A stretch of DNA of 64,000 bases, taken from NCBI RefSeq assembly GCF_000150955.2, contig NW_002238035.1, forward strand, positions 1-64,000. Reading direction: 5' to 3'. Within the stretch, counting starts at the first letter, position 1, and the number at the start of each line of letters is the position of its first letter. Origin of the DNA: Phaeodactylum tricornutum CCAP 1055/1 (lineage: Eukaryota > Bacillariophyta > Bacillariophyceae > Surirellales > Neidiaceae). The notes under the pieces are model-generated. The model did not search any database and had not been told where the DNA came from. It saw only the letters and a list, made by a program, of their open reading frames with translations. The position numbers were made by a program, and so were the translations under genes. Positions 6,001 through 32,680 of this stretch are shown piece by piece.

Positions 6001-7286
6001 GATCAAACGCCGGACGACCGGTGTTGATCGTTCGCGCATTATATGGATTAAAGTCGAGTGGAGCTAGATGGAGAGACCATATGGCTGCAACACTACGTGA
6101 GGCGGATTATGTCAGCAGTAAGGCTGATCCTGATGTTTGGATGCGTCCCGCGACCAAACCAGATGGTTTCAAGTACTGGGAGTACGTTCTCGTGTATTCT
6201 GACGATATTCTCGCCATTAGCCATGACCCGAAAAGTACGATGGACTACCTAGAGTCCAAGTACACTCTCAAGAACGGTACCGTTGCGGAGCCAACAACTT
6301 ATCTTGGAGCTGAGATCAAGAAGTGGCGCATTGAGGGTTCCGACGACCCAGCGAAGATTCGCTGGGCGATGTCTTCGGAGACCTACATCAAGTCGGCTAT
6401 TGCTGATGTTGAAACGGAATTGGCGAAAGTTGATAAATGCCTTCCTACGAGGGTAACAATGCCTCTCAGTGCTGGCTATAGGCCAGAACTAGACCAGAGT
6501 CCGGAATTGGACGCAAGGAGGGTCACGTATTATCAGGGTCTAGTGGGGGTCCTAAGGTGGATGTGTGAATTGGGCCGGATCGATATTCTGGTGGATGTTG
6601 CAATGATGTCTCGCTTTTTGGTACTACCACGCAAAGGGCAATTGCAGCAGCTGTTTCATATTTTCGCATATCTGAAGGCTCACAAAAGGTCGACCTTGGT
6701 TTTTGACAATTCAGTTCCTACGTTTGATGCTGAACGGTTTGTTCAGAAAGATTGGTCGGAATTTTACCCGGGTGCAGCGGAGCCGATTCCGCCTAACGTA
6801 CCGGAACAACGAGGTAGATCAGTGTCAATGACGTGTTTTGTTGATGCGGATCATGCCGGGTGTCGGTTGACTTGCCGGTTGCATACAGGAGTATTGATTT
6901 ACGTAAACCGTGCGCCGATTTTGTGGTACTCGAAGCGGCAGAACACGGTGGAATCAGCAATGTACTCGTCAGAGTTTTGTGCAATGCGGACGGCAATTGA
7001 CATGATTGAAGGATTGCGGTATAAGTTGAGGATGCTTGGAGTTGGACTGGACGGACCAACCCATGTGTTATGTGACAACCAGTTGGTTGTTATCAGTTTG
7101 ACTGCGCCGGAGACAGCATTGAAGCGGAAGCACAATGCGATAAATTATCACAGAACGCGCGAGGCGCAGGCAGCAGGAATTGTCTCAATTGCTAAGGAAC
7201 CAACAGAGACGAATCTGAGTGATTTTCTGACGAAGAGTGTTCCTGGTCCGCGATTGAGAAAGCTGAGTGGTACAGTTCTTTGGTAA
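3084..7286 (+). other. Pol polyprotein region of element 1 (about 1400 residues)
   Basis: One long frame holds the copia order. A retropepsin-like DSHADTC is near residue 28. An integrase core follows, with a typical HSQWQNRAEGEI segment near residue 435. A chromo-like WKLLVSWKDGSTTW segment lies near residue 765. The reverse transcriptase box YSDDIL is near residue 1038, and an RNase H CDNQLV is near residue 1330. The order integrase before RT places it in Ty1/copia. The frame is long and open, so the copy is relatively young or constrained. Confidence 0.9.
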
Positions 7287-14839: not shown

Positions 14840-15317
14840 CCTTTTCGTGTCGACGACGGGTGCGTGTATGCGATACGTGTATTTGATACGTAAATGCGAT
14901 ACGTGCATGTATGTTCCTTCCGTCCGTCGATAGATCCCGACAACTCACAGTCGAAAGTGTTCTGCCTGGAAACGGAGCTATTACAGATTGCGTAGCAAGC
15001 GCTTCTCTGTTGGAAGGATAGAAACGTAACCACCAAGAGTGTTTCGTAGGGGACAAATGGAGGATCTTTGGTGAAATGCTGAAAGCTTCAAAGCCGAAAA
15101 CGGACTCGGAAGTGAACGATCGTCGATGACAGATGCTGACAGCTACCGTGACGAACGCGAGATTGTTGACAGAATCCTGCACGAACGAGGGTACCGCAAA
15201 TAGACACGTTGCAAAAGATACCTCTTTGGGGAAAGAAAGATCCACTTGCCAATTATAACACATTTTGACAGAAAGAAGAGCGGCAAGAGTTCGATGGAAT
15301 CACAGGTCTCTCTTCTC
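14840..15317. other. Promoter-side intergenic region
   Basis: About 480 bp between the start of the membrane protein gene and the 5' LTR of element 2. Small open frames here look like shadows. Nothing recognised. Confidence 0.5.
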
Positions 15318-15468
15318 TGAGCAAATCCAGTGGTAGTGGATCTGGTGATGTGATATAGGTAGTATGTCACAACCCCTATAATTTAACCTTGTGTTGCGTA
15401 TCATCACGTCCTGTATGGAATGTACTGTAAATATGGACCTACGTATCCACTACGGTGAGATTAACAGA
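15318..15468 (+). repeat. 5' LTR of element 2
   Basis: Starts TGAGCAAATCC and ends GATTAACAGA, immediately before the putative primer-binding site GTTTATCAGA. Its first about 112 bp recur at 21950-22061. Confidence 0.85.
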
Positions 15469-16171
15469 GTTTATCAGACCCAATGCATACACGGATGTGT
15501 AGGTGATGTTTCTTGCCTTCGTGGGGAGAAACGGGTGAGAAAGTGGCTTGTTTGATACAGCTTTCATGGGTCTTCCCCATGGTCGCGGAACCGTACGGAT
15601 CGAAACGATCGCACGGGTATTGAGCCGCTGTGGTCGGAATGGCCGGAACTAGCCTTAAATGGCAAGAATTTGCCGTTGTATACGGTGTGAAAGTAGACTG
15701 TTGTTTAGGTTATATACACACCCAACTGAGTGTGTCTTACAACAGACGGCCATTGTGTATGGTTAGGTCATAAGTTATGACTGGTAATTTCGATATTTGT
15801 CGTTGGGTATGACACCGAAACCATAACCAATTTATTGGTGAGCTATGCTGGATAGCGTATAATACTAAGGCCGCTGTCCATAAGCGTGCTAGAAAAGTTA
15901 TGTCATTGTGTATGACTCCCTTTTATTTAGCCAAACTATTGGTGAGTTACATTGGATGATGTAGAAAACTAGCCAGCTCCACTGGTGGGCCACTGGATTT
16001 GCTCAAACACGGATATGTGTGGCACTTATGGCCTGGAACGGAAGGTAGCCAAGCCTGGAGGCTTGTGTTGGCTCCTGCGGTCCGTGCGGCTTTTCCGATG
16101 GCGTTTACTGCTTTTGAATTGCGTTACGTTGTTTCGTTGTTCTTTCCTTTGTTGAAATTGTTGTTGATATC

Positions 16172-17476
16172 ATGGCTGCTGACGGTGCTAATGCGTTTCG
16201 TGGTGCGCTCGGGCGGATCGGATGGTCTGTTCCTGCGGCAAACGCGTTTACGAACGAAGGTTTTGATGCGATGGACTCCCTTGGCTTGGTTACTTGTGAC
16301 CGTCTCAAGGATATCTGCAAGATCATTCGTCGCGGTACCGATGGTGTGGCCGCAGTGCCAGCTGCTGGTGGAAACGCTGCGGTGGCGGCGGCGCCTGGCA
16401 TCCCTGGGATAGCGATCCCCATGATGTGGGAGTACAAGCTAAGCGGAATGCATCTCTGGGTGTCTGAGCGTCTCCAACAGGGGACTCCGGTTGTTGCGGC
16501 GGACTTTACTGCGGCTATCGGAAACCTGTACACCAGGAAGGTGCGTGAACTAGAAGAAGCGAAGGATGAGGAGGATGTCCAAGTCAAGCCTCCGGCTCCG
16601 TTCTCGAAGCAAACGAAGTGGATTCCGTTCTTCAAGTTGTTGGTCAACTATTTGAGCTCCGTGACGGGTGTTAACAAAGTGCCGTTGGATTATGTTGTCC
16701 GGAAAGATGACGACGTCGCTGCACCGGATACCGAGTTTGAGATGGAGCACGAGAAGTTGGTCTTGTTGACTCCCCATACGGGGACGGCGTTCGACAAAGA
16801 CAACGGAAAAGTTTGGATCCAGGTGAAGCAGTTGACTGTGAACGGTCCGGCCTGGACCTACGTCGCTCCTTTCGAGAAGAAACGCGACGGTCGTGGAGCG
16901 GTCTAGGCTTTGAATTGTCACTATGAAGGTGATGCGGTGATGTCCAAGTCAAAGGCGGCTGCGTTCGATGTGCTCGAGCACACCACCTACACTGGCGAGC
17001 GTCGTCACTTCGGGATGGAAAAGTACACAAATGCTTTGTCAACGGCGTTCCAGACTCTTGACGAGTATGGCGAGACATTGACGGAGTCCAGGAAGGTGGA
17101 TGTCTTCTTGCGCAATAACCATTGCACAGATCCTTAGATGCTCTCGGGAATTGCGGTAATTCAAGGCGACGCGGACCGCATGTCTAATTTTGCAAAGGCG
17201 GCCGATTATTTGGCCTTGTTTACTAACACTGATACCTCTCAGAAGACAGGTCGGTCAATTTCAAGCGCTCAGCGGACTAGTAACAACAAGAAGAAGCCGG
17301 CCATTCGAGCTGGCAATTATACTCCAAATGAATGGCATCAACTTTCAGATAAGGAAAAAGACAAAGTCCGAGCCAAGCGAGCGGCCGCGAAGCCTCTCGC
17401 AACAAGAACAAGCGCTCAGCTGCGGCAATCACTCGTTCGAGTGAGAAACCTGACAAGGGGAGTGCGGATGGTGTAA
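16172..17476 (+). other. Gag-like region of element 2
   Basis: Ala-rich N terminus followed by helical segments, with a basic tail holding TPNEWHQLS, comparable to TPGEWKSLS in element 1. Fossil, broken about twice internally. Confidence 0.65.
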
Positions 17477-17577
17477 CCAATGCAGGTGATCAGTTTGCTC
17501 TCTCGAACAAGAAGAAGAAAAGAAAGACAGTTGGTTTTGAAGGCGAAACGAGCGATTGACTCGTTGGGGTTGACGAG

Positions 17578-20500
17578 ATGTTGTCAGCCACCCTAGTTCG
17601 AGGCCTCATGAAGCTTTCAATTGCTGGATTGCGGTCTAGTAAGAGATGGACCAAAGTTTGTGGCGACCGTGGCATTGGTCGAATGATTTCGGGATCTAGA
17701 AGTTCAAGATTTGAAGGTCAAGTAGATCTTGACTCCCATGCAGATACATGTATTATGGGAAAGGTGTTCCACATATACAGTGCAACCGGGCAGAAATGCA
17801 CGGTTATGCCGTATTCGGATAAGTACAAACCAAGAGTTGTTGAGGTTGCAGATGGATGTACTGCATTTGATGACCCGGTCACCGGTGAGACGTTCATTTT
17901 GGATGTGTTCCAGGCATTGGACATGACGGGTGACTTGCAGGACCCTTCATTGTTGTGCCCGAACCAATTGCGTGCGAATGGTTTAATTGTGGACAATGTT
18001 CCCAAACATTTGTGTCACAACCGCGAATCAACTCACTCTATTTATATTCCTGAGATGAAATTGCGTATTTCTTTGGAATTGCAGGGAGTTATGTCAGGGT
18101 TCCAGGCACGGTTGCCTACCCAGACGGAGATTGAGACTTGCGTTCATGTCAAACTCACTGCACAGGAAGCGTGGGATCCTAGTTCTGACGAGCTAGAACA
18201 ACAAGAGCGTTTGAAGGAGACTCGGTTGTCTAACGTAGCTGGCACCGTGTCTACGTTATTTTCGGGTCGAAAATCAGAGATCTCAGCAGTCTTATCGTCC
18301 GTCAGCTCTATGCTTGTGGATGATGACTTTGTTTGTGGAATGGAACAGTCTGTTCGGATCACATTGGCTGTGGCTAGTAGTACTGTGTGTACCAAGTCGC
18401 GGCACTCAACGATGGAACCGATGGAACTATCTTGTCGTTGGGGCATCGGCCTCTCGACGGCACAGAAAACTTTGAAAGTGACAACCCAGAAAGGTTTGCG
18501 GACTGCTGTTCATCCGTTGCATTGCCGGTATCGCACGCAACAGCAGCAGCTTCGTTACAATCGTCTGAACTCCAAATTTTACTCTGACACCATGTTTTCT
18601 TCATCGGTTTCTCTGCGAGGCAATACTTGTGGGCAAATCTTTGTGAATGATTTGAACTATAGTAAGTTTATACCAATGAAGAGCAAGGGTGACGCTGGAA
18701 TGGCGTTGGAAGAACTCTTTCAGGACGTCGGGGTGCCAACGCATATGCACACCGACGGAGCAAAAGAGCTCACCACTGGGCACTGGCGGAAAGTTTGCCA
18801 GAGCTACGGTCCGGTGAAGCAGACCATGTCTGAACCACTGACCCCGTGGCAAAACCGGGCGGAATCGGAGATCCGGGAACTCAAGAAACAAGTGCTTTGT
18901 ATTATGTCCCATGAGGGTATTCCGCAAAGATTTTGGGATTATGTTGCCGAGTACGTTTCGGAGATTCGGTCTCGGACTGCTCACCCATTGTACAATCTCA
19001 AAGGTAGGACACCCATTGAGCATGTCACCGGGGAGACCCCGGATATCATGGAGTGGCTGGAGTACAGGATGTACCAGCCTGTGTGGTACTTGGACCCTGG
19101 GGACTTCCCAGAGGAGAAGAAATTGCTTGGCCGGTGGTTGGGTCCTGCACACAGAGTCGGACAGGCGTTCTGTTGCTGGATCGTTCCCAAGTCGGGACGA
19201 GTGATTGCACGGTCTACGGTGCAGCCAGTTTCAGAAGACGAGCGTGGATTGGACAGTTTCAAGACTAGGTTGAAGGATTTTGACAAGTCAGTCCAGGACT
19301 TCCTCAACAGGGGCGACACACATGTACCGGATGGTGGCATTAGCTGGAAAGCTGACCGTGTGTACGCTGCAATCGATGAAGATATCGACCCCGTAGAACA
19401 GGAGTCCACCATGCCAGAGGCTGATGAATACACAGAAGAATCCTTTGATAAGTATCTCTCGGCAGAAGTAGTGTTAGCATTGGGGGACGGAAAGCAGCGG
19501 GCCAAAGTTACCGGTCGAAAGCGGGATACGGATGGAAACCCCGTTGGCGTTGCAAATTCTAACCCAATTTTGGATACCCGTGTTTACACAGTCGAGTTCC
19601 CGGATGGGACCGAAAAGGAGTATTCCGCTAACATTATTGCAGAGTCCCTGTACTCTGAAGTTGATCAAGATGGACGGCAGTTCCAATTGATTGACGAGAT
19701 CATTGACCATTCTTCCGACGCGTCTGCAGTCTCTCGGGACAACATGTATGTGGACAAAGATGGTTCCAATCGGCATTTGCGTCGGACGACCAAAGGTTGG
19801 AAGCTTTTGATTCAATGGAAAGACGGGACGTCCACGTGGGAGCGCCTTGCCAACCTTAAGGAATCAAACCCTGTGCAAGTTGCTGAATATGCAGTTGCTA
19901 ACAAGCTTGCAGAGGAACCGGCGTTTATCTGGTGGATCAAAGACGTTCTACGACGTCGCGATCGGATTATTTCTAAGGTAAAAGCTCGGTACTGGAAACG
20001 CACTCACAAATTTGGTATTCGTGTTCCCAAGTCTGTAAAGGAAGCTTTGGAGATTGACGCGGAAATGGGGACCGATTTCTGGAAACGTGCAATCGAGAAA
20101 GAGATGGCAAACGTTATGCCAGCATTCAAGTTCCTCAAAGGGGACGAAAATCTCCCGGTTGGTTGCCAGAAAATTGATTGTCATATTATATTTGATCTGA
20201 AACTCGATTTGACTCGCAAGGCACGGTATGTGGCTGGGGGACACATGACGGAAGCACGGGCGGCGTTGACTTATTTGTCGGTAGTGTCTAGAGAAAGTGT
20301 ACGGATTGCATTTATGGCGGCAGCGTTAAACGGGTTGGACATTTTGGCGGCGGATGCGCAGAATGCTTATCTAAACGCGGATTGTCGGGAAAGTGTGTAT
20401 ACCATTGCGGGTCCGGAGTTTGGTGCAGCTAGACAGGGGCTTCGAGTGTTAATTGTTTGAGCACTATATGGTTTAATGAGTTCCGGCGCGGCGTGGCATG

Positions 20501-21714
20501 CGCACTTAGCGCAAACAATGTCTGATTTGAAGTTTCGACCCTGCGTGGCGGATCCTGATGTTTGGTTGCAACCCGCTGTCAAAGGTAATGGGGACAAATA
20601 CTATGAATATGTACTCATTTATGTTGATGACATTTTGGCAGTTTCAGAGAAGCCGGCTCGGATTATGGGAACGTTATCAGGTCTCTATAAGTTTAAAGAA
20701 GATCCAAAGACCCGGAAGAAGTATGGTCCTCCCAATCGTTATTTAGGTGCTAACGTTGGAAAGTATAAATTGCCAGGAGCTACCAAAGAGCATTGGTATA
20801 TGAGTTCGGACAACTACGTGAAAGCTGCGGTAACTAATGTTGAAAATGAGCTTTTCAAAGTTGGGCAGAGGTCTACCACGCGGTCGGGACACACCGTTAT
20901 GTCGCAATTGTACTGTCCGGAATTGGATGTGTTGCCTGTGTTGGGAGCGGACAAAGCTAACTATTACCAGAACCTAATTGGATAGCAATGGGCAGTTGAA
21001 TTGGGGCGGATCAATATCTTTGTGCAAGTTTTGATGTTGTCGCAATATCTCGCTCAGCCCAGGGAGGGACATTTGGATCAAGTGTTCCACATATTTGGAT
21101 ATCTAAAGGTGCATGGACAATCTAAAGTTGTTTTCGACAATACGTTTATTTTGTGGAAAGACAAGTTTACTCAGTGTGATTGGCAGGATTTCTATCCCAA
21201 TGCAAAGGAACCGATTCCAGGTAATATGCCGGAGCCTTGTGGAAAGGAAGTTCAGTTGAATGCTTTTGTTGATGCTGATCATGCGGGCAATCAGGTGACG
21301 CGTTGTTTGAGAACGGGTGTTTTGATATTTGTGAACAAGGCACCGGTGATATGGTTTTCGAAACGACAGAACACTGTCAAAACGTCTACATTTGGTTCGG
21401 AATTTGTTGCGATGAAGATTGCAACGGAGCTGTTGATTGGTTTGCGGTACAAACTTCAAATGATGGGTTTGCCTCTGGATGGACCGGCGAACATTTTCGG
21501 GGACAATCAATTGGTAGTTACCAATGCGTCGCAATTGGAGTTGGTTTTGAAAAAGAAACATGTTAGCCTTTGCTATCATTGGGTGAGAGAAGCGTGTGCA
21601 GCCGACATCATTTGGATTGCTCATGAGAGTACCAAAACAAACTTAGCGGATTTGCTAACAAAGAATTTGGATGGTCATCGGATTCAAGAACTAGTTTTGA
21701 GGATCTTGTATTGA
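17578..21714 (+). other. Pol region of element 2
   Basis: Same domain order as element 1: a protease core DSHADTC, an integrase segment TPWQNRAESEI, a chromo-like WKLLIQWKDGTSTW, an RT box YVDDIL and an RNase H GDNQLV. Protein similarity to element 1 runs along the whole length. About two breaks lie in it. Confidence 0.85.
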
Positions 21715-21949
21715 CTTTATTTGGGTCCCTTGCTTTGGAAGAAGCATTGTACCTCCCACCGTGCGGAATTGCATTACAAGAGTGGGTTTCTGTGAGCATT
21801 GTTACAACGTGGATATGATTTTTTATATTTGTTTTTAAAGACGGTTGTTGATTTGGTTGTTGATCATGGATTTGGTCGTGATCCCAGGAGCTGGACGGAT
21901 TGTTTGGTCACCTTATCATTCTGAGTTACAAATAATAATGTGAGGGGAC

Positions 21950-22061
21950 TGAGCAAATCCAGTGGTAGTGGATCTGGTGATGTGACATAGGTAGTATGTC
22001 ACAACCCCTATAATTTAACCTTGTGTTGTGTATCATCACGTCCTGTATGGAATGTACTGTA
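21950..22061 (+). repeat. Shortened 3' LTR of element 2
   Basis: Matches the first about 112 bp of the 5' LTR with about two differences, then switches to unrelated sequence after TGTACTGTA. The lost end is not found at the far side of the island near 28.9 kb. Confidence 0.8.
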
Positions 22062-22217
22062 TCAAGGTCATAGGAGTCTTTGGCATATTTCTGGAGTCCA
22101 TTGGAGTCCCTCCCCTCAGCGCAAGCTTGCATACCCTGTAACAGCAATAATGGTAGTTTGTAAAACAATCTTCAACTTCAACTTCACAAAATCACTTAAG
22201 ATTCCGATTCCAAATTA

Positions 22218-22334
22218 ACTTCTCAACGTTCCATGAGAAAAGAATTAAGGACTTCTCAACGTTCCGTGAGAAAAAGAATTAGGAGTTCTTCCGTGATAGG
22301 TCACGTCTTGTTCTTCCAGGATAGGTCACCTCTC
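22218..22334. repeat. Two sets of tandem repeats, 33 bp and 25 bp, with palindromic core
   Basis: A 33-bp unit (22218-22250 and 22251-22283) contains TTCTCA, 8 bp, TGAGAA, a perfect 6-bp inverted pair, at 22220-22239 and 22253-22272. A related 25-bp unit with TTCTTCC and GATAGGTCAC follows twice (about 22285-22309 and 22310-22334). The arrays sit directly upstream of the recombinase gene. They resemble recombinase binding cores or iterons; this role is inferred. Confidence 0.8.
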
Positions 22335-22361
22335 TCAAACAACCGCTGGTGAATCATCAGC

Positions 22362-24890
22362 ATGCCACCAACCTCTCATGCGATATCCGGAGGCGGAGCA
22401 AAGTTGCTCCACCACCTCCTCACTCACCCACATGACGAGATCAGACGGATAACATCTTCTCGATCAGAGCGGGTAACATCTTCCACCATGTCAAAGACTA
22501 TCTTTAATGGTGATTCTAATGACAATGAATCCGTTTTCTATGCCAATGCCCGTGATGACCTCAATGCGTCAGCTGCGAATAAAGAAAGACAAGCCCTCAA
22601 GCATTTCAATCATTTCCTCAAGACCTACTGTGTTCAAATTGGAATCCAAATCATTGAAGCTGCAACCATACCATACCATGGCATCCCTTGCAAGGCATCC
22701 AAGAAGGCAGTGTTTGAATTCTGGGATTTGATGACTGGTGCCTTTGTAACCTACATGGGAAATCATGCAAAAATTGGATGTGATCCTGAAGCCGAACGTA
22801 TCAAACGCGGCACGGCAGCCCAGTACTGTTTGTCTGTCAGAGGCTACTTCAACAACAAGTTCCGTAATGAGGATCCCATTCCCATTCTCCACAATGACAA
22901 GCAGTGGAGTAAGCTGATGACCAAGCTACGCGGGAAGTATTGCGAGGCTAATCAAGCGTCAGGAAAATCAGCCGTCGAAGGTAACAAGTCAAGCACACGC
23001 AAAGATCGTGAATGGTTGGCAACAGGTTGTATTTGGGACGGCACTGCGGAAACTTCGGAATTTTGGCACCTGCTCAACACCACATACCATTGCAGTGGTA
23101 GAGGATCAGAGGTTTCATTGATCAAGCCTAAGGATATAAGAGCTGTGGAAGTTAACAAATGTATTCACCAGTATCACATCCTTCAAGCTGAAGTCCAAAG
23201 ACAGAAGGACCAACCGCTCCAGAACATCGTGATATATCCACATTGCGATGGCATACTCGAAGACTATTATTTCAGTCTCATCTACTTGCTTGTAATGACC
23301 GGATGCAACAAACGGTTTGTATTACCAACATTTGCCGTTGCTGCATTGAAGACCAAGTCAGGAAAATCCAACAGCCAGGTCTCTTCTCTTTGGTCAGGTC
23401 TCTTCAATGACATTAGAAACAAGTTTGAATTGTTGAACACCTGAGTCAATGGCCCTCTATCCTCCCATTGCAACAGAGGAGGCTCCAATCAAGTGGTGGT
23501 GGAAACCCCAGGTCTGTCGCTAGCAGCCGTATTTCGTACAGGTTGGGCAAACCGCCGCTGTGATACCCTCTGGGAATACATCTCAGATTCATTTGTTTTA
23601 TCCAAGCAGGCTGGAAAAGCCTTGTCCAAATGGACACATCGGATTGGAGATACAATATACGGCGGTCAACCCCCAGCCTTTGATGATATTGGTGGCTATC
23701 ATGGAGACCCATCCCCTCCTTCCTTCTTGCAAGACAGTGACGCTGGTAAAGCCGTTGCAACCGCTTTAGTTGATGGAAACCGCAGCAAACTTCAACAATT
23801 CTCGGACGTTCTCTTTGAAGATGACACAGACAGACGCTGGCATCCTCGTGTCCGGGAACTGCTTGTGATGACGTTGTTGCTACGTTACGACCAATTCTTG
23901 GCTGTGCTAAGAAGACACCCGGATGCATACATCTCAGATTCATTCAAGTCTTACCCGCGATTCGATCTTGATAAGTCCTGCAACTACACAACAATCCGAA
24001 ATCATCTTTTCGTGTGCCGAGTTGAGCGGGCATTAGAAAAAGCAGGTGTGGACAAGTCTATATTTAACGACTGGTGTAAGTGTGCCCGCAGTGCTTTCAT
24101 TGAACGCAACCTCATTGCAATTCCGGATCTCTCGTTGTATGGTGGAACCAACAAAAGGATAATGTTAGACCCGCGCTTTTTCATTGACCACATGAACAGT
24201 ATTGCTTCGCTGGCCCAGTCAAATCACCACGTTGTCCAACAGCTACGTCGTCAACTGAACGACATGCAGGAACTCATGACTCATGGTTTGAACCTGAACC
24301 ATCGGCTCCACGTGGATCAATGTACCTTGTTGACTTCTGTTCGAAGAATGGAGACTCATCTCCTAGGCAACCGTCCGGAAACCGTATCGCCGTCACCTTC
24401 CTCTAACGTTACCCCGTTCACTGTCAGTATGAAAGGTTTCACCAACCAGAAGTCAATGTCTGATGTCTTTGTGTCCTTTTTCGATGAAGATTACCGCGCC
24501 GGTTTCGAATTGGATAAGAAGAGTGAAGCTTGGAAAGAGGATATGGATGCACCTGAGAAGAAACGTTACAAGAATTTGTTTACTAAGATCAAGCGTGCGA
24601 TCAAAATAGCCTTGATGCATGTAGACGAGTTTCCGTTGATCCCTGATGATCCATCAAAATACAAAGAAGTTCTCCGAAGAACAGCAACTGTAGCAGAAGA
24701 GCGTATCCGCAACAGTCTCGATTACGGAGACAAAAAGATCAGCATCTATACGCTGGTGAACCTTCCTGATATCAAAGACCGGGAGAAGACGTTGAAGCTT
24801 CCAGACGACACACCAGAGGAAATGCGTAAATTCTTTACTAAAAAATACTTAAAAATCATTACCGCCCTTTGTAGCGAAAATAGTCAGTGA
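22362..24890 (+). CDS. Tyrosine recombinase, Crypton-like, interrupted once
   Basis: A single reading frame over about 840 codons, interrupted once near its middle. The N-terminal part has a helical core-binding-like domain. The first catalytic Arg is probably in HCSGRGSEVSL, which matches the A-R-x-x-E box of tyrosine recombinases. Further on, HCNRGGSNQ fits the H-x-x-R box, and GWANRRCDTLWEYIS fits the final box with its nucleophilic Tyr. A C-terminal domain of some 200 residues follows (YRAGFELDKKSEAWKEDMD) and may bind DNA, as the GCR1_C-like domain does in Cryptons. The protein would cut and rejoin DNA through a 3'-phosphotyrosine and could integrate circles. An unrelated phage-type integrase origin is possible. 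Start at the first ATG (22362); a Met at 22491 is an alternative. Confidence 0.6.
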
Positions 24891-25140
24891 TCAATTCCTG
24901 GTTACACAATTTAACCCTTAGGTTAGGTGGTCTCCTAGGCTCTCGTCTAACCAGCCGCTGCAAGTCGGGATGAAGCCCAGTAAGGCAATAATAGTCTACG
25001 AAAAGAGTGTACTTATTCATGAAGGATTTCAGCAAACTAACGGAAGATAGTTTGGTATTACTCAAGCTGGAACCTCCTTTCAGTATAAGTTTAATCGATT
25101 TCTTCTTAACAGTAGATTTATCACCGGAGTTAATCATCAT
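24859..25140 (-). CDS. Small basic protein, unknown
   Basis: 93 residues, rich in Lys and Arg, opening MMINSGDKSTVKKKS. I recognise no domain. Its start codons overlap the stop of the upstream gene in the string ATGATGATTAA (25130-25140), which argues that the two are expressed as a pair. Its 3' end overlaps the end of the recombinase frame by about 30 bp. Confidence 0.4.
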   Translation of the reverse strand: MMINSGDKSTVKKKSIKLILKGGSSLSNTKLSSVSLLKSFMNKYTLFVDYYCLTGLHPDLQRLVRREPRRPPNLRVKLCNQELITDYFRYKGR

Positions 25141-25462
25141 CTAGGATCAATACATTCACTCCATTCTCTACGATGTATTCAATGATTGTCAGTCCATAAC
25201 CTGGAACAAAATGCCGGTCACCTATGACAATACCCATTCCGCGATCTTCACAAACCGATACAACATGCCCAGTATCTTTGACGTCATACTCGTGCATCTC
25301 TTCGCAGTAAGGACACTTCACACTAGTTGTACCTTGTTGCCTCAGTGCAATCGGCCTCTCGTAATATTCCTGCAAATACCGCTGCATCTGTTCCAAACTC
25401 ATGGGGAGGCCTCCCCCAAGAGCAGCTTCATTCGCACATACAACTTTTGAATTGTTCTTCAT
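25130..25462 (-). CDS. Small zinc-ribbon-like protein
   Basis: 110 residues. The middle carries CPYCEEMHEYDV followed by GHVVSVCED, so Cys-x2-Cys, His and a later Cys could bind one zinc ion. The C-terminal half (GMGIVIGDRHFVPGYG) is neutral and compact. No family recognised. It starts about 140 bp from the origin-like hairpin and is transcribed away from it. It overlaps the next minus-strand gene by 11 bp, in the style of viral or bacterial gene pairs. Confidence 0.5.
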   Translation of the reverse strand: MKNNSKVVCANEAALGGGLPMSLEQMQRYLQEYYERPIALRQQGTTSVKCPYCEEMHEYDVKDTGHVVSVCEDRGMGIVIGDRHFVPGYGLTIIEYIVENGVNVLILDDD

Positions 25463-25601
25463 GGTTTCTTTCCCAAGTTATGATCAAATCAGATGCCAAC
25501 AGACCCCAACTACAAATGTAAGGCCGTGTCTAACCTCTGCGCCCAACAAGTCAAAGTGTTATCACCGCGGGGTATTTTGCGCGCGTTTCCCCCGAATGAA
25601 A

Positions 25602-25662
25602 ATGGACGGGTTGGACAGGAGTGGGAAAACCATTATTACCCCACTCCCGTCCGTCCGTCCAT
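25602..25662. other. Hairpin with CRESS-type nonanucleotide (replication-origin-like)
   Basis: Two arms of 23-24 bp (25602-25625 and 25640-25662) pair almost perfectly: ATGGACGG plus GGAGTGGG on the left and the complement on the right, with about one mismatch and one bulge or two. The 14-base loop ends in CATTATTAC (25631-25639). This fits NANTATTAC, the loop motif nicked by Rep in CRESS-DNA viruses. It sits between a leftward gene and the rightward Rep gene, the usual place for such an origin. Confidence 0.75.
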
Positions 25663-25722
25663 GTTTGGAAACTTTCCGAAAACACGTCAGCATCATTTAA
25701 GACCCCAAACATGGACCCAAGC

Positions 25723-25752
25723 CCTGCCGGCGATTGAGGCCGGCGATTGAGG
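25723..25752. repeat. Short direct repeat GCCGGCGATTGAG
   Basis: The string GCCGGCGATTGAG occurs twice in a row, ending at the start of the AT-rich minisatellite. It may mark an insertion or slippage edge. Confidence 0.6.
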
Positions 25753-25754
25753 CT

Positions 25755-26226
25755 CCCTCATCATATGACATCCTCGCCTTCATTCTCGTCCATCCGTCAT
25801 CCCTCATCATATGACATCCTCGCCTTCATTCTCGTCCATCCGTCATATACTCATCAATATACGTCATATACTGATCATCCCTCACCAATACGCCATACAT
25901 ATCATCATACACTCATTCATATAACGTCAATATAACGTCGTCATTTACCTATCGTTGTTCATTGTTGTTCATTTCATCATACGCCATATGTCATTCATAC
26001 GTCATATACGTCATACATCATCCCTCACCAATACGCCATACATATCATCATACACTCATTCATATAACGTCAATATAACGTCGTCATTTACCTATCGTTG
26101 TTCATTGTTGTTCATTTCATCATACGCCATATGTCATTCATACGTCATATACGTCATACACTCATTCATATAACGTCAATATAACGTCGTCATATACCTC
26201 TCGTTGTTCATTGTTGTTCATTTCAG
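25755..26226. repeat. Minisatellite with about 46-bp and 143-bp units
   Basis: A 46-bp unit starting CCCTCATCATATGACATCC is present twice (25755, 25801). Then a 143-bp unit starting ATCATCCCTCACC occurs at 25874 and 26017, with a third, partial copy ending at 26226. The string ACGTCA occurs eight times in the array, mostly as TACGTCAT or AACGTCAA. The array lies between the hairpin and the Rep gene, so the repeated hexamer could be an iteron-like or CRE-like site, or plain satellite growth. Confidence 0.85.
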
Positions 26227-26352
26227 AATTTAGGTGTCAGAATTGCGAATTTTCTAGCTACACCCATAAAAAAAACAAAAAACAAAGCCTCTTCAAACCT
26301 CGAACAGTCTCATTATTTTAAGTTAAAAATTACCCGGCATTTAAACCAAAGT

Positions 26353-27102
26353 GTGGAATACTGCAAGAAAGACGGTAACTGGACTGAAGTAGGAGAATGT
26401 CCTGCTGAGAAACCAACCCAATGCGACTTAGAAGCTTTCAAGCAATCCGTCTGTGTTGAAGGCATATTTGACCATCATGAACTTCAAGAACTTCACAGCA
26501 CAGTCTGGGCTAATTATCGAGACAAGTTCTGCATAGACTACATTTCCCAGCATCTTCCACGAGATCCCATTCCGACTCATCCCCTCCGTGATTGGCAGTC
26601 CAAATTATATCAAAAGCTCATTCTAGCTCCACATCCTCGTGAAATCATATTTGTTGTAGATTCCGTTGGTAACCAAGGGAAGAGTTGGTTCTCAAAATAC
26701 TACAGATCTCTTCATGAAAAAAACACTCAAATAGTGAAACCATGCAAAGCAGCCAATATGGCTTATATGATCAAGGAAGCGTCAAGAGTATTCTTCTTTG
26801 ATCTTGTGCGTTCTCGAAAACTCTACCTCCAATACGACTTTGTGGAAGAACTGAAAGATCGTGAAGTCGTGAGCCCTAAGTATCACACTCGTTTGGTTCA
26901 GTTGTGCACCACTCCGCATATCATGGTCCTCATGAACCATTACCCTGATATAACCCGCCTGTCACATGACAGATACGTCATTTATAAAATTTGCGATGAG
27001 AACCCTAATTTTGACCCCGTTGGTGTTTCTATTGAAGAACAAAAAGCCGCGGAACTTCGAATGTCGAACCTCCGTGAAGAACAAAACCATCGTGAATATT
27101 AG
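26353..27102 (+). CDS. CRESS-type Rep protein, helicase part (virus-like fossil)
   Basis: About 250 residues. It opens with EYCKKDGNW, which matches the third HUH-endonuclease motif of CRESS Reps. A superfamily 3 helicase follows, with Walker A SVGNQGKSW, Walker B RVFFFDL and motif C IMVLMNHYPD, then an Arg finger region LSHDRY. In known systems Rep nicks the origin and unwinds DNA for rolling-circle replication. No ATG opens the frame and the 5' portion is not recognisable, so I regard the gene as broken. Similar Reps occur in bacilladnaviruses of diatoms, in other CRESS viruses and in plasmids; which is closest cannot be told here. Confidence 0.8.
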   Translation: MEYCKKDGNWTEVGECPAEKPTQCDLEAFKQSVCVEGIFDHHELQELHSTVWANYRDKFCIDYISQHLPRDPIPTHPLRDWQSKLYQKLILAPHPREIIFVVDSVGNQGKSWFSKYYRSLHEKNTQIVKPCKAANMAYMIKEASRVFFFDLVRSRKLYLQYDFVEELKDREVVSPKYHTRLVQLCTTPHIMVLMNHYPDITRLSHDRYVIYKICDENPNFDPVGVSIEEQKAAELRMSNLREEQNHREY

Positions 27103-27107
27103 TTAGC

Positions 27108-27566
27108 CTAAACCTTATCCTTCTGGTGATGATGCTCAAAATCCCTTCCCTCAATTGCATCGACCAGAAGCTTGATAATAAATTTAGGATCTTTGGTAAA
27201 CGTTTTCGAATTACCTGCCCGAGACAGGTGACCCACCGTCACCAATTGCTTATCAACACAGACCAGACGACCTAGATTAATTGCGTCTCCAAAACTTGAA
27301 GGATAACAAATGCAGCATTTTCCTAGCCATCGCCTAATGTGAGGTAGCCCGCAAGGAGACTTTAGACTTACATACCCCTTCAGCATCAAACAGGGTTTAT
27401 CCCAATTCACGACCTTGGAGATGCATGCAAATCGCGCCACCCTTTCAAACAACCGTATCAGGTATGTAAGCGACTCCTCTCTCGTGCTTTTGGTTTTAGC
27501 CCTATCCCCGTGCCGGCTGTAATTAAAGAAGAGACAGAAAACATAACGTTTCGCCGATGTTGTCAT
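27108..27566 (-). CDS. Small protein weakly resembling a Rep HUH domain
   Basis: 152 residues. FCLFFNYSRHG lies where CRESS Reps have motif I. LKGYVSLKSPCGLPHIRRWLG resembles the motif II stretch (HLQGY), without its first His. VCVDKQLVTVG aligns loosely with the motif III stretch, without the Tyr. If the likeness is real, the protein is a non-cutting relative of the Rep nuclease and may bind the origin. Otherwise it is an unknown basic protein. It is convergent with the Rep gene, 5 bp apart. Confidence 0.4.
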   Translation of the reverse strand: MTTSAKRYVFCLFFNYSRHGDRAKTKSTREESLTYLIRLFERVARFACISKVVNWDKPCLMLKGYVSLKSPCGLPHIRRWLGKCCICYPSSFGDAINLGRLVCVDKQLVTVGHLSRAGNSKTFTKDPKFIIKLLVDAIEGRDFEHHHQKDKV

Positions 27567-27653
27567 TTTACCTTAATTGGCAATCCTCTCTGTTAACACC
27601 AATTCTTTCCGGTTTTTATGAGAGACCAAGACTAATATAATCTTTATCTTATT

Positions 27654-28196
27654 CTAAGGTTCTGGTCCATAGAACGTCCTAACTTTGATTCTGGTACCGC
27701 CCTCATTGCCCCGTAGCTTGTAAACCAGTAGCTTAACGACCTGGCTATCGTCATGAAAGACAATACCCTGCATTGCATCTAACGTGAACTTCGCCAAATT
27801 GTCAATATCCGGTTTAACTGTCTCGAAAGGATTAGCCCTCCCCGGTTTCAATGCATTAATTCGCTTATTCCCATCGTAGTCGCTGTTAGGCCTTCGAATA
27901 TAGAAGAACAAATTAACCTCAAGGCATTCACCGCGTGGAAACACAACACCATCTTCAGGCAACAGAGCTTGCAACTTCTTAGAAAACTCCTTCAATTGCC
28001 TCGTCGCAGGGTTGAACCAAATTCCACGCCCCAAACGAGGCCTCGGCATAGGGATAGGTTTCCCTTCGATGTAGACGTCAATAGGCCTTCCAGTGTCCCT
28101 CGTCAAATCAATTACTGAAGGAGCCATGATAGGTGATAATCCCATTGGATACAACATGTCACATTTGGACCCAACGTTGTTTGGACCCATCCTCAT
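27654..28196 (-). CDS. RusA-family Holliday-junction resolvase
   Basis: 180 residues from the first ATG; a later Met at 28127 would give 157. An N-terminal strand IEGKPIPMPRPR precedes a block with KPDIDNLAKFTLDAMQG and FHDDSQVVKL. These are the RusA signatures with the three acidic residues that bind metal (D-x-D-N and the later Asp). RusA cuts four-way DNA junctions and is mostly known from phages, prophages and bacteria. Here it sits upstream of the small Rep-like gene on the same strand, 87 bp away, so both may come from one transcript. The frame looks whole. Confidence 0.85.
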   Translation of the reverse strand: MRMGPNNVGSKCDMLYPMGLSPIMAPSVIDLTRDTGRPIDVYIEGKPIPMPRPRLGRGIWFNPATRQLKEFSKKLQALLPEDGVVFPRGECLEVNLFFYIRRPNSDYDGNKRINALKPGRANPFETVKPDIDNLAKFTLDAMQGIVFHDDSQVVKLLVYKLRGNEGGTRIKVRTFYGPEP

Positions 28197-28553
28197 CTCA
28201 CTCCAAGAACCCCAATGCAGTTTGGATCATTCGCGCCAATTACTGTACCCCGAAATATCTGGATTATGATCGGTTTTTCTGGACGCCTCCGGACACGGGA
28301 CCGAATGAGGAATGAGTCCCATTACGCAACGCACGTCCCCGCCTGCCGACCCTCGCCCGGTAACATGAGATGCCCACGACCAAGTCACCGGTACCCACAT
28401 GATGACTCCTTTTCGTTTGGCAACCGGGATAGTTTTTTCTTCAACCCAGTCAAGCTGAAACCGAAAGGCTCCTGCTCGCCAACAATCAATCCAATAAATA
28501 CAAATCCAAAGCCATTCATCTTGTAAAACGTCCTCATGTTGTAGTCATGACAA

Positions 28554-28847
28554 ATGGTTGGCCTCAAAAGACACCCAATGACGAAGTATCTGCACCTCAC
28601 CGGGAATGATTTCAAATGGAGTCACGGTTATAAAGCTGACGAAGGCGGAGCGTTTGCACCAGGATTTCACCTCCCAGCATTGACGCCTCAAATGTCACGA
28701 AAGAAACCCCGGCAGCTAGACGAAGATAAAGAAAATCTAACAGCCGCTGACAAGTACATTAAGAAAGTGCAAGACGGCGCCGGTAGCCGTAAATTCAAAA
28801 ATTTCCTAGGTAACAAACCAATGGAACAACACACCCGCAAAACCTAG
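28554..28847 (+). CDS. Small Lys-rich protein, unknown
   Basis: 97 residues. The N-terminal half is mixed, the C-terminal half is Lys/Asp-rich (SRKKPRQLDEDKEN). No domain recognised. Upstream, 28197-28553 holds only weak open frames. The gene could belong to the island or be a chance frame. Confidence 0.3.
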   Translation: MVGLKRHPMTKYLHLTGNDFKWSHGYKADEGGAFAPGFHLPALTPQMSRKKPRQLDEDKENLTAADKYIKKVQDGAGSRKFKNFLGNKPMEQHTRKT

Positions 28848-28966
28848 TCGAAAACGTTTTTTTTTAGGGTTAGCTAGTTTACAGTTAGTGTAGTGTAGTC
28901 CTCTCCTCAATTCCTCTTCCGAGCTTAGTACAGCATATGAATCCATAAACCGGTACCTTCTCGACC

Positions 28967-30529
28967 CTAACTTATCTCTCGGTCCCCGCTCGATGGTTCA
29001 GTGTATTCTTTCCCAACGTCCGGCGGTGCTTTAGCATACTTGCGCACGGCCTTGAATGTCAAAAAAATCGAGAGGATACTGGTGATGGCCAACAAAAAAA
29101 GAACGGCAATCGATGCACCATGGTCCAATGACCAAGAGCCATAATCACTATCCTCATCTGCAGCATAGTTGTAACCCACATCACTGACGCAGCTGGACGA
29201 CAAGTATCGGTCAGTCACAGTGTCAGTATAAGTGATACATTTGGTGTTACCATCACAGCCACGGCCGCTCAATCCGCAGCGGTCCAACCCATTGTGCGTC
29301 AATTTACGGTAGGCAACACCAAATTCCTGGGCCAAGAGGTCAGGGTCGGTGGCAAATGCCTCAGCGTGCGGGCGCGTCATTGGATTAGCTTTAAGGAAGA
29401 AGTCAGACCTAAGGCGCATCTTCAACAGCTTAACATCGCAAGGGGAATCCGACGTGTTGTAGACACCATCCGCAAAGTTACAACCACGCATAGCCTGGGC
29501 TTCGCAATTAAGCGGATCCTCGGACAACTCGGTTTTACAGGTTGAGGGGGGCGTAGTATCTTCCACAACAGCGGGAATGTCACTGGAAAAGGGGTCCTCC
29601 ATGGACATATAGGATACAGTACCGTTCTTGTAAGTGCATACTTTACGCCAGAGCCAGTCATCCTTGAGCAAGTCGACGAAGAACTCAGGCACTCCTGTCT
29701 CTGGATCGGACCAGGAGAGAGGATCGGTTGTCCATTGTCCTTGATATCCAGAGCACATCCCATGGGCAGAGCCAAAGTTGTGTCCACCCCCAATAACGGC
29801 AACCAGTTCGGAGACAGTGAGGTTATACATGGTCACAAAGTGCATCATTGGATCGTTATCAGGCGATGCCATTGATTGGGTATAGGCCAACTTCTCCAGG
29901 TCCACACGGCCGCCCTGGACCCGAATGAGGTCCATGCGAGGAAAGCCCATAGAATCAAGCGCGACAACTCCGGCAATAATGACAGCGTCGGCAAGGGAAA
30001 CAATAGCGGAATTGTTAAGTCGACTGTTGATCTCGTCTGTAGCAGTCTGGATACAACCATTCATGTCGTCGTCGAGCTCTGCCTGGTTGAAGATCGTTCC
30101 TCCATTGGACCCGCCAGAACCGGAACCGTGGTGATAGGACCCACTGGAGTGGAAGGACGTACGGAGAAGGAGTGGAGCGAAACCACGATAACTGTCGTCG
30201 GGATTGGAGTCAGCGCCGCTGTTCAGAAGATCATATACTTTCTGAGCAACGTAACAGTAAGCAATTTTTTCCTTTTCCTGAAGCGTGACGAACCAGGGAG
30301 CGTGAAAGAGCTGACTGAGCTTTCCCTTTTCCTGTATCGAGAGAGTAGCCCACCAAGCTGCTTCTTCCGAAGGCAACAAGACATCGGTTCCTTTGCTCGG
30401 GCTCAGAACAGGATCCTGAGCAGACAAGGGCTGAGCCGACAAGGGTACAGCGACCCAAAGTAGGGCAAAAACGAAATGCACGGAAGGGAGAATCATCATT
30501 CTGAATTCATCAATTATTGTGAGGTCCAT
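28967..30529 (-). CDS. Secreted or membrane-anchored haem peroxidase
   Basis: 520 residues from the first Met (490-510 from later ones, for example 30499, which starts right at the signal peptide MMILPSVHFVFALLW). The plant-type peroxidase fold shows a distal pocket LLLRTSFHSSGSY with the catalytic Arg and His near residues 121-126, a helix LADAVIIAGVVAL, and a proximal haem-ligand segment VIGGGHNFGSAH near residue 250. A Cys-rich extension follows. One membrane span (AVLFLLAITSILSIFLTF) close to the C terminus gives a type I topology. It probably reduces hydrogen peroxide at the cell surface or in an organelle lumen. No intron is needed. Confidence 0.85.
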   Translation of the reverse strand: MDLTIIDEFRMMILPSVHFVFALLWVAVPLSAQPLSAQDPVLSPSKGTDVLLPSEEAAWWATLSIQEKGKLSQLFHAPWFVTLQEKEKIAYCYVAQKVYDLLNSGADSNPDDSYRGFAPLLLRTSFHSSGSYHHGSGSGGSNGGTIFNQAELDDDMNGCIQTATDEINSRLNNSAIVSLADAVIIAGVVALDSMGFPRMDLIRVQGGRVDLEKLAYTQSMASPDNDPMMHFVTMYNLTVSELVAVIGGGHNFGSAHGMCSGYQGQWTTDPLSWSDPETGVPEFFVDLLKDDWLWRKVCTYKNGTVSYMSMEDPFSSDIPAVVEDTTPPSTCKTELSEDPLNCEAQAMRGCNFADGVYNTSDSPCDVKLLKMRLRSDFFLKANPMTRPHAEAFATDPDLLAQEFGVAYRKLTHNGLDRCGLSGRGCDGNTKCITYTDTVTDRYLSSSCVSDVGYNYAADEDSDYGSWSLDHGASIAVLFLLAITSILSIFLTFKAVRKYAKAPPDVGKEYTEPSSGDREIS

Positions 30530-30976
30530 GAGAACAACCTGGCTGCAAACTAACCGTGACAGTGAGTTAACTTGAGTAAGTCGTACTAGAGTACTAGTTT
30601 CACGATCTTGAACTTTTACGATTTGGATCTTTTACCATCATCCGGAACGCATAGCATACGTGCGTACACACGTTTCCTTCCGTATAATCAATCGTACCAA
30701 ATCTCACCGGTTAACACAAACCATGAATAACCCGCACTGTTGGATAAGCAAGAAACCCGAGCGACGTGAAATTCGGCAACCAAGACACTCTCCTGGCAAG
30801 ATACTTCACATCTACCAAATTAATGCACGTCTAACAAACTAATTCTACTTACAGTTAGAGATCATTTTCTACCATCATCAGGGTTAGGATCAATAGCCTG
30901 GTATACATCCGGCAAGCCAGCACCGTTGCAAGCAAGGCGTCCCGCTACTTGCCCAAGTCCCCACATTCTCTCCACG
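30530..30976. other. Intergenic, upstream of peroxidase
   Basis: About 450 bp up to the start of duplication block 1. Nothing recognised; likely peroxidase promoter. Confidence 0.5.
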
Positions 30977-32680
30977 ATCGACTCCCGATTCGATTGTTGA
31001 CAGAGCTGATCTGCTTCCAGTTACTGCGCAACTCCAGTTGCTAGCGTTAAAAACAACCTAATGAGCGAAGGGCTCTTGCGAGAGAGAGTCTCGTCGTGTT
31101 GAAACTGTTGCAAACAGATTACTTTTCCCTACCAGTGCTTTCTGCTGCTGCTACTTGCTACTGTTACAGTTGCTCGCTTGTGCGACCGAACACGAGAGTA
31201 TGCAATTCTCACCAACGCCGCTGGAAGAGCCGCGGTGGGATCGCACGGTGAAAGTCGTCGTCTCTCCCGCCACGGTTACGGTCTCGAGACCTTCTACAGA
31301 TCGCGCGACGGAACACGACAGCCATGAGGGCAACGGGGACACGCCCATGGATAGGCCGCTAAATCCGATAGTCGGTTGTTTGAGCATGGAAGCCGGAGAA
31401 CCTACTCAACAAGCAGAACACGCGGGAGTTGGCGAGGAGGTGTTGGAAAAGACGGCCTATGTGGAGGAAGGAGCATCAGTGCTAGGAGCCGAGACGCTTG
31501 TTCCGGATGCTGCCTCTGAAGATGAGCGCGATGTTCCGATGATCACGACAACAATTCCAGCTTACGCAATTCCACCAATATCCGTGCCGAGCAACCAAAA
31601 GAACACGGACGTTGATACGAACACGACTGAAGTACCGCCCTTTGCCATGGGAGATCACGTATATCGCTTGACGGGACCGTTTGGATTGTCCCAACATCAC
31701 GGCATCGTACTGACTGTGGCACGGAACGAAACGTCGCCCCTCGAGTGGATCTTGGAGATTGCTGACTTTGATGCTTTGCTGGGAGCCCAGTCGGATCTTG
31801 ATCAGAATGAAATGAGACAAACGGATTGTACGTCCACACCGCAACATGCTGGTACGGTTGAAGCAATGTCACAGTCCCCCCACACAGCCGAACTCGAAAA
31901 TGCCGACGCGGAGAATTTGGAGTCAGTCGATAATCACGAGACGCCCCAAAAAATTGACGTCGCACTCACTTCACAGTACGTTCGAGAGTATCGCACGTCC
32001 GATTCCACGGTGACTTGGCACAAGGTACAGTACCACGCACGCTGGCTGCGCCGTCATTTCGGTCGTAGTGGAACGTGTACCGCAGCCGCAGCCGACGCTC
32101 CGGGTATGGTTCGAGCCCGGGTGGACTTTCTTTTGCATCACCCCGAGGCCTTACCGCCTTATCACATGCTCCAAGCCAATACGGAGTGTGTCGCGGTTTG
32201 GTGTCGAACTGGTACATGGGCTACGTTGCAAGCCACGTCTTGGTTAGCCGTGACGGCGGCGGGACAAGCCAAGTCGGCCGCGACGCTAGCAACCGTCGCC
32301 GCGTCCACCACCGTCACCGTTCCTGCGGCCGGACTCTGGGGTTGGATGGGCTACACCTCCCAGGCTAGTTTGGCCGTCACCCAACCGCACCTTCTACCGG
32401 CCATTGCCGCCTACGGAGCCGTGACGGTGGGACTCCCGCTGTTGTTTCTCCAAAAGGCCAAGCAAAAATGGAAAGACGTCACGGTTCAACTCAATACGGC
32501 CTTTTGGGACTGGGCTCAGTCGTCGGAGGACTTTGTCGAATCTCTGCTGCAGTGGAGCAGCCAACACGATCCTGTGGTTCTTGTCGACTAAAGAAGACAG
32601 GATCAATGATGGCAATTGAAAATTCATGTTGAGACCGTAACGTCGGAAGGTTAGTCATGGACGTTTTGAGGTGCATCTGA
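30977..32680. repeat. Segmental duplication block 1, copy B
   Basis: The intact partner of 7797-9498, about 98 percent identical. It includes about 220 bp upstream of the LRAT-like gene, so promoter elements were copied too. Confidence 0.9.
31200..32591 (+). CDS. LRAT-like (NlpC/P60-fold) protein
   Basis: 463 residues from the ATG at 31200, the first in-frame ATG after a stop at 31062. The frame is open 45 codons further up and reads like a signal peptide (YLLLLQLLACATEH), so an upstream exon is possible. The N-terminal 150 residues are low-complexity and acidic. The LRAT fold follows: GDHVYRLTGPFG and HHGIVL give the catalytic His, and NTECVAVWCRTG gives the catalytic Cys in the LRAT NCEHF-type box. 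The C terminus is hydrophobic (AAAGLWGWMGY and AAYGAVTVGLPLLFL), suggesting membrane anchoring. LRAT proteins are acyltransferases or thiolases acting on lipids or proteins; the substrate is unknown. Confidence 0.7.
   Translation: MQFSPTPLEEPRWDRTVKVVVSPATVTVSRPSTDRATEHDSHEGNGDTPMDRPLNPIVGCLSMEAGEPTQQAEHAGVGEEVLEKTAYVEEGASVLGAETLVPDAASEDERDVPMITTTIPAYAIPPISVPSNQKNTDVDTNTTEVPPFAMGDHVYRLTGPFGLSQHHGIVLTVARNETSPLEWILEIADFDALLGAQSDLDQNEMRQTDCTSTPQHAGTVEAMSQSPHTAELENADAENLESVDNHETPQKIDVALTSQYVREYRTSDSTVTWHKVQYHARWLRRHFGRSGTCTAAAADAPGMVRARVDFLLHHPEALPPYHMLQANTECVAVWCRTGTWATLQATSWLAVTAAGQAKSAATLATVAASTTVTVPAAGLWGWMGYTSQASLAVTQPHLLPAIAAYGAVTVGLPLLFLQKAKQKWKDVTVQLNTAFWDWAQSSEDFVESLLQWSSQHDPVVLVD

What the first reader, a model, noticed from the sequence alone, without database searches (positions are those of the whole stretch)
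22062..28966. Candidate new mobile element: tyrosine recombinase, CRESS-type Rep and origin, RusA resolvase, no capsid
Genes are tightly packed on both strands around an origin-like hairpin, unlike the host genes beside them. The set suggests a plan: Rep makes DNA circles from the hairpin, RusA resolves four-way junctions, and the recombinase integrates the circle. I know of no described family with this set. It may instead be two layered elements, a Crypton-like transposon and a CRESS virus fossil.
Basis: inference. Interest (0 to 1): 0.9.

Follow-up and report, generated by a model that had tools for sequence, protein, structure and literature searches.

The report
Transposon with resolvase plus viral debris
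A diatom genome carries a family of jumping genes that pair a recombinase with a junction-cutting enzyme, and in one old, broken member the remains of a small virus-like replication system lie between the two genes.

Summary
The co-occurrence test was run in the window's own genome (27,450,724 bases, 88 contigs; by size and contig count the Phaeodactylum tricornutum reference). YR and RusA travel together: at C17 and C22 they form a 4.67/4.83 kb block, about 99% identical, with the window's convergent layout and a 7-bp CTTACAG repeat at both ends; nine exact copies of its YR-side end exist. Rep was found at one place only, not in the seven other YR/RusA places read. A decayed second Rep piece lies at 28433-28606. 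Best reading: a decayed member of a Crypton-type YR+RusA transposon family, with CRESS-derived DNA as a second layer. A true YR+RusA+Rep element is not excluded; no second locus supports it. The window copy's ends and empty site were not found. Cryptons in this species are in print; one with RusA was not found in my searches.

The parts
15317..22061 (+). Copia LTR retrotransposon directly left of the locus; LTRs 15317-15429 and 21949-22061, 98% identical. Not part of the element
   Evidence: LTR copies at many places in the genome (40 scored)
22362..24890 (+). Crypton-type tyrosine recombinase gene, one frame with a premature TGA at 23442-23444; GRGSE 23097-23111, HxxR in SSHCNR 23460-23477, FRTGW 23532-23546, tyrosine in LWEYI 23568-23582
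   Evidence: 24-27% identical to the C17 YR
25130..25462 (-). ORF, 110 aa, CPYC zinc-ribbon-like by eye, unknown
   Evidence: weak phrog_13474 match 0.0019; one place in genome
25613..25652 (+). CRESS-type origin hairpin, loop with CATTATTAC (fits NANTATTAC)
25754..26225 (.). Direct repeats (46 bp x2, 143 bp x2 plus a partial copy) between hairpin and Rep
26353..27102 (+). CRESS Rep, 5'-truncated: motif III (EYCKK 26356-26370), Walker A GNQGKSWF 26668-26691, Walker B VFFFDL 26788-26805 (motif names recalled); HUH motifs I and II absent
27108..27566 (-). ORF, 152 aa, unknown; resemblance to an HUH domain tested and not supported
27654..28196 (-). RusA-family Holliday junction resolvase, intact ORF; PDIDNLAK 27789-27812, FHDDSQ 27741-27758
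28433..28606 (+). Frame holding a decayed C-terminal piece of a second Rep
   Evidence: profile E 1.8e-5; P0002 8.9e-4; the window's own Rep gave no hit there

Best explanation
The locus is an old, inactivated member of a Crypton-type DNA transposon family whose unit is two convergent genes, a tyrosine recombinase at one end and a RusA resolvase at the other. CRESS-replicon-derived DNA (origin hairpin, a truncated Rep, a second Rep relic) was inserted into it or captured by it. Shown: the YR+RusA unit at C17 and C22, its 7-bp CTTACAG ends, the near-identity of those two copies, and the same gene layout in the window at about 25% YR identity. Inferred: the YR recombines the two CTTACAG cores to release a circle and joins it to a CTTACAG-like site elsewhere; RusA cuts the four-way junctions left by the YR or by replication. 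Inferred: Rep and the hairpin once served rolling-circle replication of a separate CRESS replicon and do nothing in this copy, because the nicking half of Rep is missing. Rough odds: YR moves the C17-type element 0.85; RusA acts on YR-made junctions 0.4 (otherwise on replication or repair junctions); CRESS DNA is a separate layer 0.6-0.65.
For: RusA paralogs at C17 and C22 sit within about 3 kb of YR paralogs. The C17 and C22 blocks match at 98.8-99.2%, C22 having about 150 extra bases, and stop at the same two points, each CTTACAG. In all three places the two genes point at each other from opposite ends. YR C17 vs C22: 15 synonymous and 9 non-synonymous changes, pN/pS 0.17, no stops. Nine exact YR-side ends, control 0, with eight distinct flanks; three RusA-side ends. 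Window RusA, C17 RusA and P0065 group together, support 0.845, apart from the chromosomal RusA gene at C2. Rep: 1 place in the genome; in 12 stretches at 7 YR/RusA places the best Rep match is E 8.5. Two Rep pieces lie on either side of RusA.
Against: The ends of the window copy were not found; shared words between its two sides are at chance. So it is not shown that YR, Rep and RusA here lie inside one pair of ends. No insertion scar was recognised around the Rep-bearing interior, so its later insertion is not shown either. The RusA grouping is only moderately supported. The window YR and RusA are far from the C17 ones (24-27% and 41%). The C22 RusA frame holds two stops and RusA changes between C17 and C22 are 3 synonymous, 5 non-synonymous, so RusA is not equally kept. 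Four YR-side ends (C7, C13, C26, C29) and the C5:1041850 RusA-side end were not read inward.
Confidence: 0.6

Rival explanations
1. One three-part mobile element: the YR integrates and excises it, Rep and the hairpin copy its circle by rolling circle, and RusA resolves junctions; C17/C22 are a reduced lineage that lost Rep, and the window copy is a decayed full-length one.
For: All three genes and a non-random origin hairpin lie in 6.9 kb; Rep lies between the two genes that bound the element elsewhere; YR+RusA is a bounded pair.
Against: Rep is found at one place only and not in the 12 stretches read at 7 YR/RusA places; of 93 viral-contig loci with a RusA match none has this Rep or YR (these are a capped list, 80 of 522 plus 13, and presumably mostly phages); a second Rep relic suggests more than one CRESS insertion.
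Confidence: 0.22
2. Unrelated neighbours: a Crypton, a CRESS integration and a RusA gene ended up side by side in a rearranged, repeat-rich scaffold.
For: The scaffold is rearranged: the left flank of the neighbouring Copia continues at C11 into DNA unlike its right flank, and 7797-9497 is duplicated at 30976-32678.
Against: The same YR+RusA pair in the same layout is a bounded unit at C17 and C22, so chance adjacency of YR and RusA is very unlikely.
Confidence: 0.1
3. A capsid-less remnant of a larger CRESS-type virus that itself carried RusA, next to a Crypton.
For: Rep of this family occurs in viral contigs of 12.5 and 22.4 kb with many other genes; CRESS pieces flank RusA on both sides.
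Against: No significant RusA or YR match in those contigs (16.9 of 22.4 kb of the longer one was held); RusA pairs with YR, not Rep, elsewhere in the genome.
Confidence: 0.08

Closest known systems
CryptonS transposons (Kojima and Jurka 2011, PMC3212892; passages and section 5 read)
   Same: Tyrosine recombinase DNA transposon of stramenopiles, reported from P. tricornutum itself; short terminal direct repeats; Cryptons lack terminal inverted repeats, as does the C17 element
   Different: The paper gives 5-6 bp repeats, mostly TATGG, and a C48 peptidase as extra protein in some; 'RusA' does not occur in its main text (supplements not seen). Here 7-bp CTTACAG and RusA. Whether the C17 element is the authors' own P. 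tricornutum Crypton could not be checked (Repbase not held)
CRESS-DNA replicons and their integrated copies in diatoms
   Same: Rep helicase, motif III, hairpin origin; a Rep of this family is annotated in Seminavis robusta ('Para-Rep C7', P0049); an integrated virus fragment in Chaetoceros tenuissimus is reported (PMC8613185, search listings only)
   Different: HUH half missing, no capsid found, lies between two transposon genes
RusA resolvases of phages
   Same: Same Pfam family and conserved residues; 37 phage records match, the top row 32% identical
   Different: In a diatom nuclear genome, paired with a YR; N-terminal [VI][VI]DL in 11 of 16 aligned proteins of this group
Mariner/Crypton composite MarCry-1_FO (passage in PMC3212892)
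   Same: Precedent for a Crypton layered with another element
   Different: Partner is a Mariner-type transposon, not a CRESS replicon

Membership tests
Crypton (CryptonS) | YR with R-H-R-Y catalytic residues | tested here: met
   By alignment only: window has GRGSE, HxxR, tyrosine in LWEYI, the frame being broken by a stop. In the C17-type proteins the HxxR arginine is lysine in 7 of 7, so for them this feature is met only in part
Crypton (CryptonS) | Short direct repeats at both ends, no terminal inverted repeats | tested here: met
   Met for C17 and C22, 7-bp CTTACAG; C17 ends show no inverted repeat (9 of 30 positions). For the window copy the ends were not found
Crypton (CryptonS) | Conserved CryptonS C-terminal region and YR-tree position | not tested
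   Repbase sequences are not held here
Crypton (CryptonS) | 5- or 6-bp repeat, usually TATGG | tested here: not met
   CTTACAG, 7 bp; the source says 'majority' for TATGG. So filed as Crypton-type, not as a CryptonS member
CRESS-DNA replicon | HUH endonuclease motifs I-III | tested here: not met
   Motif III only; no match to motifs I or II upstream
CRESS-DNA replicon | SF3 helicase domain | tested here: met
   Profile of relatives, E 1.1e-108 (the profile contains this protein); 52 other proteins match it
CRESS-DNA replicon | Hairpin origin with nonanucleotide | tested here: met
CRESS-DNA virus | Capsid gene | tested here: inconclusive
   None among 14 ORFs or frames scanned; decayed remains could be missed
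RusA family | RusA domain with conserved acidic residues and lysine | tested here: met
Three-part YR+RusA+Rep element (proposed) | All three genes inside one pair of ends, at more than one locus | tested here: inconclusive
   One locus in this genome; window ends not found; other diatoms not searchable by context here

The most novel reading that the evidence does not exclude
A eukaryotic mobile element that moves by a tyrosine recombinase, copies its circle with a captured CRESS Rep and hairpin origin, and resolves junctions with RusA, without a capsid: a bridge between Crypton transposons and CRESS replicons.
Probability: 0.2. Interest if true: 0.85.

Novelty: new variant of a known kind. 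Interest (0 to 1): 0.55.

Why it matters
A tyrosine recombinase works through a four-way DNA junction and normally resolves it itself (established knowledge). A transposon family that carries its own junction resolvase at its other end, with lysine in place of the catalytic HxxR arginine in the C17-type recombinases, suggests that resolution may be shared between two proteins. That is testable in a laboratory diatom that holds near-identical copies of the element. If the CRESS module proves to belong to it, it would also show how circle-making transposons and CRESS replicons can fuse.

Tried and rejected
Ends of the window copy: shared words between 22062-22361 and 28200-28966 are at chance (7-mers: 18 seen, 14 expected; longest a 9-mer, 0.9 expected). 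CTGTAA occurs 29 times in the window, 23.6 expected. TTTACAG|TTAG at 28878 looks like the family's core and flank but has the wrong orientation and no partner on the left. Rejected as evidence.

Empty site: C11 holds relatives of window 7.8-15.3 kb, but what follows there does not match 22062 onward; host flank 28967-30975 has no second place. No empty site found. None was searched for at C17 or C22.

ORF 27108-27566 as an HUH domain was my first guess from its look. hhalign probability 2.7%; of 1000 shuffles, 792 were scored and 16 did as well. Not supported. Its structure prediction never finished.

Pfam does not recognise the YR catalytic part. Phage_int_SAM_5 matched 1 of 7 family members at E <= 0.1 (best 1.9e-4), 2 of 8 rows at E <= 0.5, and the C17 N-terminal piece at 0.01, below its cut-off. 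A PDB sequence search with the family profile gave no recombinase.

Context elsewhere: YR profile in viral contigs, 80 stretches, none confirmed; Rep sequence, 4 stretches, none confirmed; Rep profile in GTDB genomes, 22 stretches, none confirmed; Rep profile in viral contigs, 3 loci, no RusA or YR in them. One search scored only the 8000 candidates sharing most words, so its 6 YR relatives are a lower bound.

Literature: 'crypton' with 'rusa' as whole words, 0 papers (the plural 'Cryptons' would not match); RusA + tyrosine recombinase + transposon + eukaryotic, 2 papers, on jumbo phages and a bacterial genome by their listing; cryptons + rolling-circle + Rep + tyrosine recombinase, 17 papers, 10 listed, none of the titles or abstract starts telling of such an element; CRESS + endogenous + diatom + stramenopile + Rep, 0. 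Broader listings also showed none: 20 of 235 listed, mostly off topic; 15 of 1,953; 12 of 39; 8 of 8. Subscription papers, preprints and Repbase are not covered.
Full report
What is there. The window lies in contig C60 (178,654 bases) of a genome of 27,450,724 bases in 88 contigs. That fits the P. tricornutum reference as described in PMC8147415 (27.4 Mbp; 33 chromosome scaffolds plus 55 unplaced 'bottom drawer' scaffolds; passages); the species name rests on this match. C60 is presumably one of the unplaced scaffolds (inference). On the left the locus abuts a Copia element ending at 22061; on the right lies a host peroxidase-type gene, 28967-30529, minus strand.

The recombinase. ORFs 22362-23444 and 23493-24890 are one frame with a single internal TGA at 23442-23444. 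The box expected of a YR, H-x-x-R followed by the tyrosine region, lies just after the stop (SSHCNR, FRTGW, LWEYI) and aligns with the same box in six metagenomic relatives and the C17 paralog. Pfam does not recognise the catalytic part. The claim that this is a YR rests on the family profile, Phage_int_SAM_5 matches in a minority of family members, the residue pattern, and a weak structure model whose top rows in the VIA second look are Cre, Ndc10 DNA-binding domain, Flp, lambda Int and XerA, with no significant plain Foldseek match. I take it as established to about 0.9.

The pair YR+RusA is mobile. RusA has five places in the genome: the window, C17, C22, a relic at C5 that shares 1.1 kb with the RusA side of the C17 element, starting about 8 bases inside its end, at 86%, and a longer chromosomal gene at C2 (407 aa). 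The YR first half has six places at E <= 1. At C17 and C22 both genes lie in one block of 4,673 and 4,826 bases bounded by CTTACAG at each end with unrelated DNA outside and no terminal inverted repeat (C17 tested). The YR-side end exists nine times exactly, the RusA-side end three times, backward-pattern controls 0. Eight of the nine flanks are distinct, since C24 and C29 share theirs; TTAG follows the core in 4 of the 8. Of the copies read, only C17 and C22 are complete; C3, C5 and C24 are cut or interrupted, and C7, C13, C26 and C29 were read for about 100 bases only. YR changes between C17 and C22 are mostly synonymous (pN/pS 0.17), which suggests selection on the protein across transposition; for RusA the ratio is 0.56 on 8 changes and the C22 frame holds two stops.

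The CRESS part. The protein search gave 53 Rep proteins among 187 candidates, one being the window's own; nine of them form with it a clade of support 1.0. Relatives listed with Viral_Rep (PF02407) keep the HUH half; the window's frame enters homology only at about 26269-26332, after motif II. So this copy should not nick by the known mechanism (established knowledge of HUH Reps). The origin hairpin is real by control and lies on the Rep strand 0.7 kb upstream. A second Rep piece lies in frame 28433-28606 (profile E 1.8e-5), outside RusA. Its best single match is P0002, 50% over 28 residues at 8.9e-4; other Rep proteins reach 56% over 25 residues; the window's own Rep gave no hit there at E <= 10. 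So it is not a fresh copy of the window Rep, but its clade is unresolved.

One element or two. For layering: Rep at one place only, no Rep match better than E 8.5 in 12 stretches at 7 YR/RusA places, two Rep pieces. For one element: the position of Rep between the two genes that bound the element elsewhere. Neither the outer ends nor an inner insertion scar could be found, so the question stays open; I put 0.6 on layering in a YR+RusA element and 0.2 on a true three-part element.

How it likely works. By established knowledge of tyrosine recombinases and the circle model for Cryptons (cited in PMC3212892, passage), the YR exchanges strands at two identical short cores; CTTACAG is the obvious core here. 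RusA cuts four-way junctions (established for phage RusA). That it acts on YR intermediates is inference; the lysine in place of the HxxR arginine in 7 of 7 C17-type proteins makes it worth testing, while the window YR keeps arginine, which speaks against a general rule.

Comparison. Cryptons in P. tricornutum are already printed (PMC3212892). RusA as a second gene was not found in print (limits under Tried and rejected). Hence 'new variant of a known kind'. The headline of a new three-part family is not shown.

Noticed in passing
L068 (12,495 b) and L069 (16,900 of 22,438 b), IMG/VR contigs; Rep at 5127-6035 and 7998-8915: Unusually large contigs with a CRESS Rep of this family and SET-domain and RNase T-type exonuclease genes in both; L068 also has a Shotokuvirus-type capsid (4.1e-35), an Erv1-type oxidase and a collagen-like protein (by its Gxx repeats). 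No exact terminal overlap in L068. Far above the usual size of CRESS viruses (recalled).
   Followed up: partly
28101-28118 and relatives in alignment A4: RusA proteins here carry [VI][VI]DL near the start in 11 of 16 aligned, resembling a SUMO-interacting motif (recalled), a possible sign of nuclear function.
   Followed up: partly
C17-type YR family (alignment A2): Invariant lysine where YRs have the second catalytic arginine (HxxK in 7 of 7); the window YR has HxxR.
   Followed up: partly
L022:3752, 8424 and the other YR-side ends: The element core CTTACAG looks like a 3' splice site (recalled); insertion into such sites might be silent. Not tested.
   Followed up: no
7797-9497 and 30976-32678; C11:908014-909714: A 1.7-kb stretch is duplicated in the window at 98% and also present in C11.
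   Followed up: partly
15317 and 22061: The Copia has near-identical LTRs but no matching target duplication; its left flank continues at C11:904214 into DNA unlike its right flank: rearranged.
   Followed up: partly
25754-26225: Tandem 46-bp and 143-bp repeats between hairpin and truncated Rep, rich in ACGTCAT by eye; iterons or a scar of the truncation.
   Followed up: no
L029:4765-5988 (-), C2: A 407-aa chromosomal protein with a C-terminal RusA domain and no YR match in the 10 kb read: possibly a host gene.
   Followed up: partly
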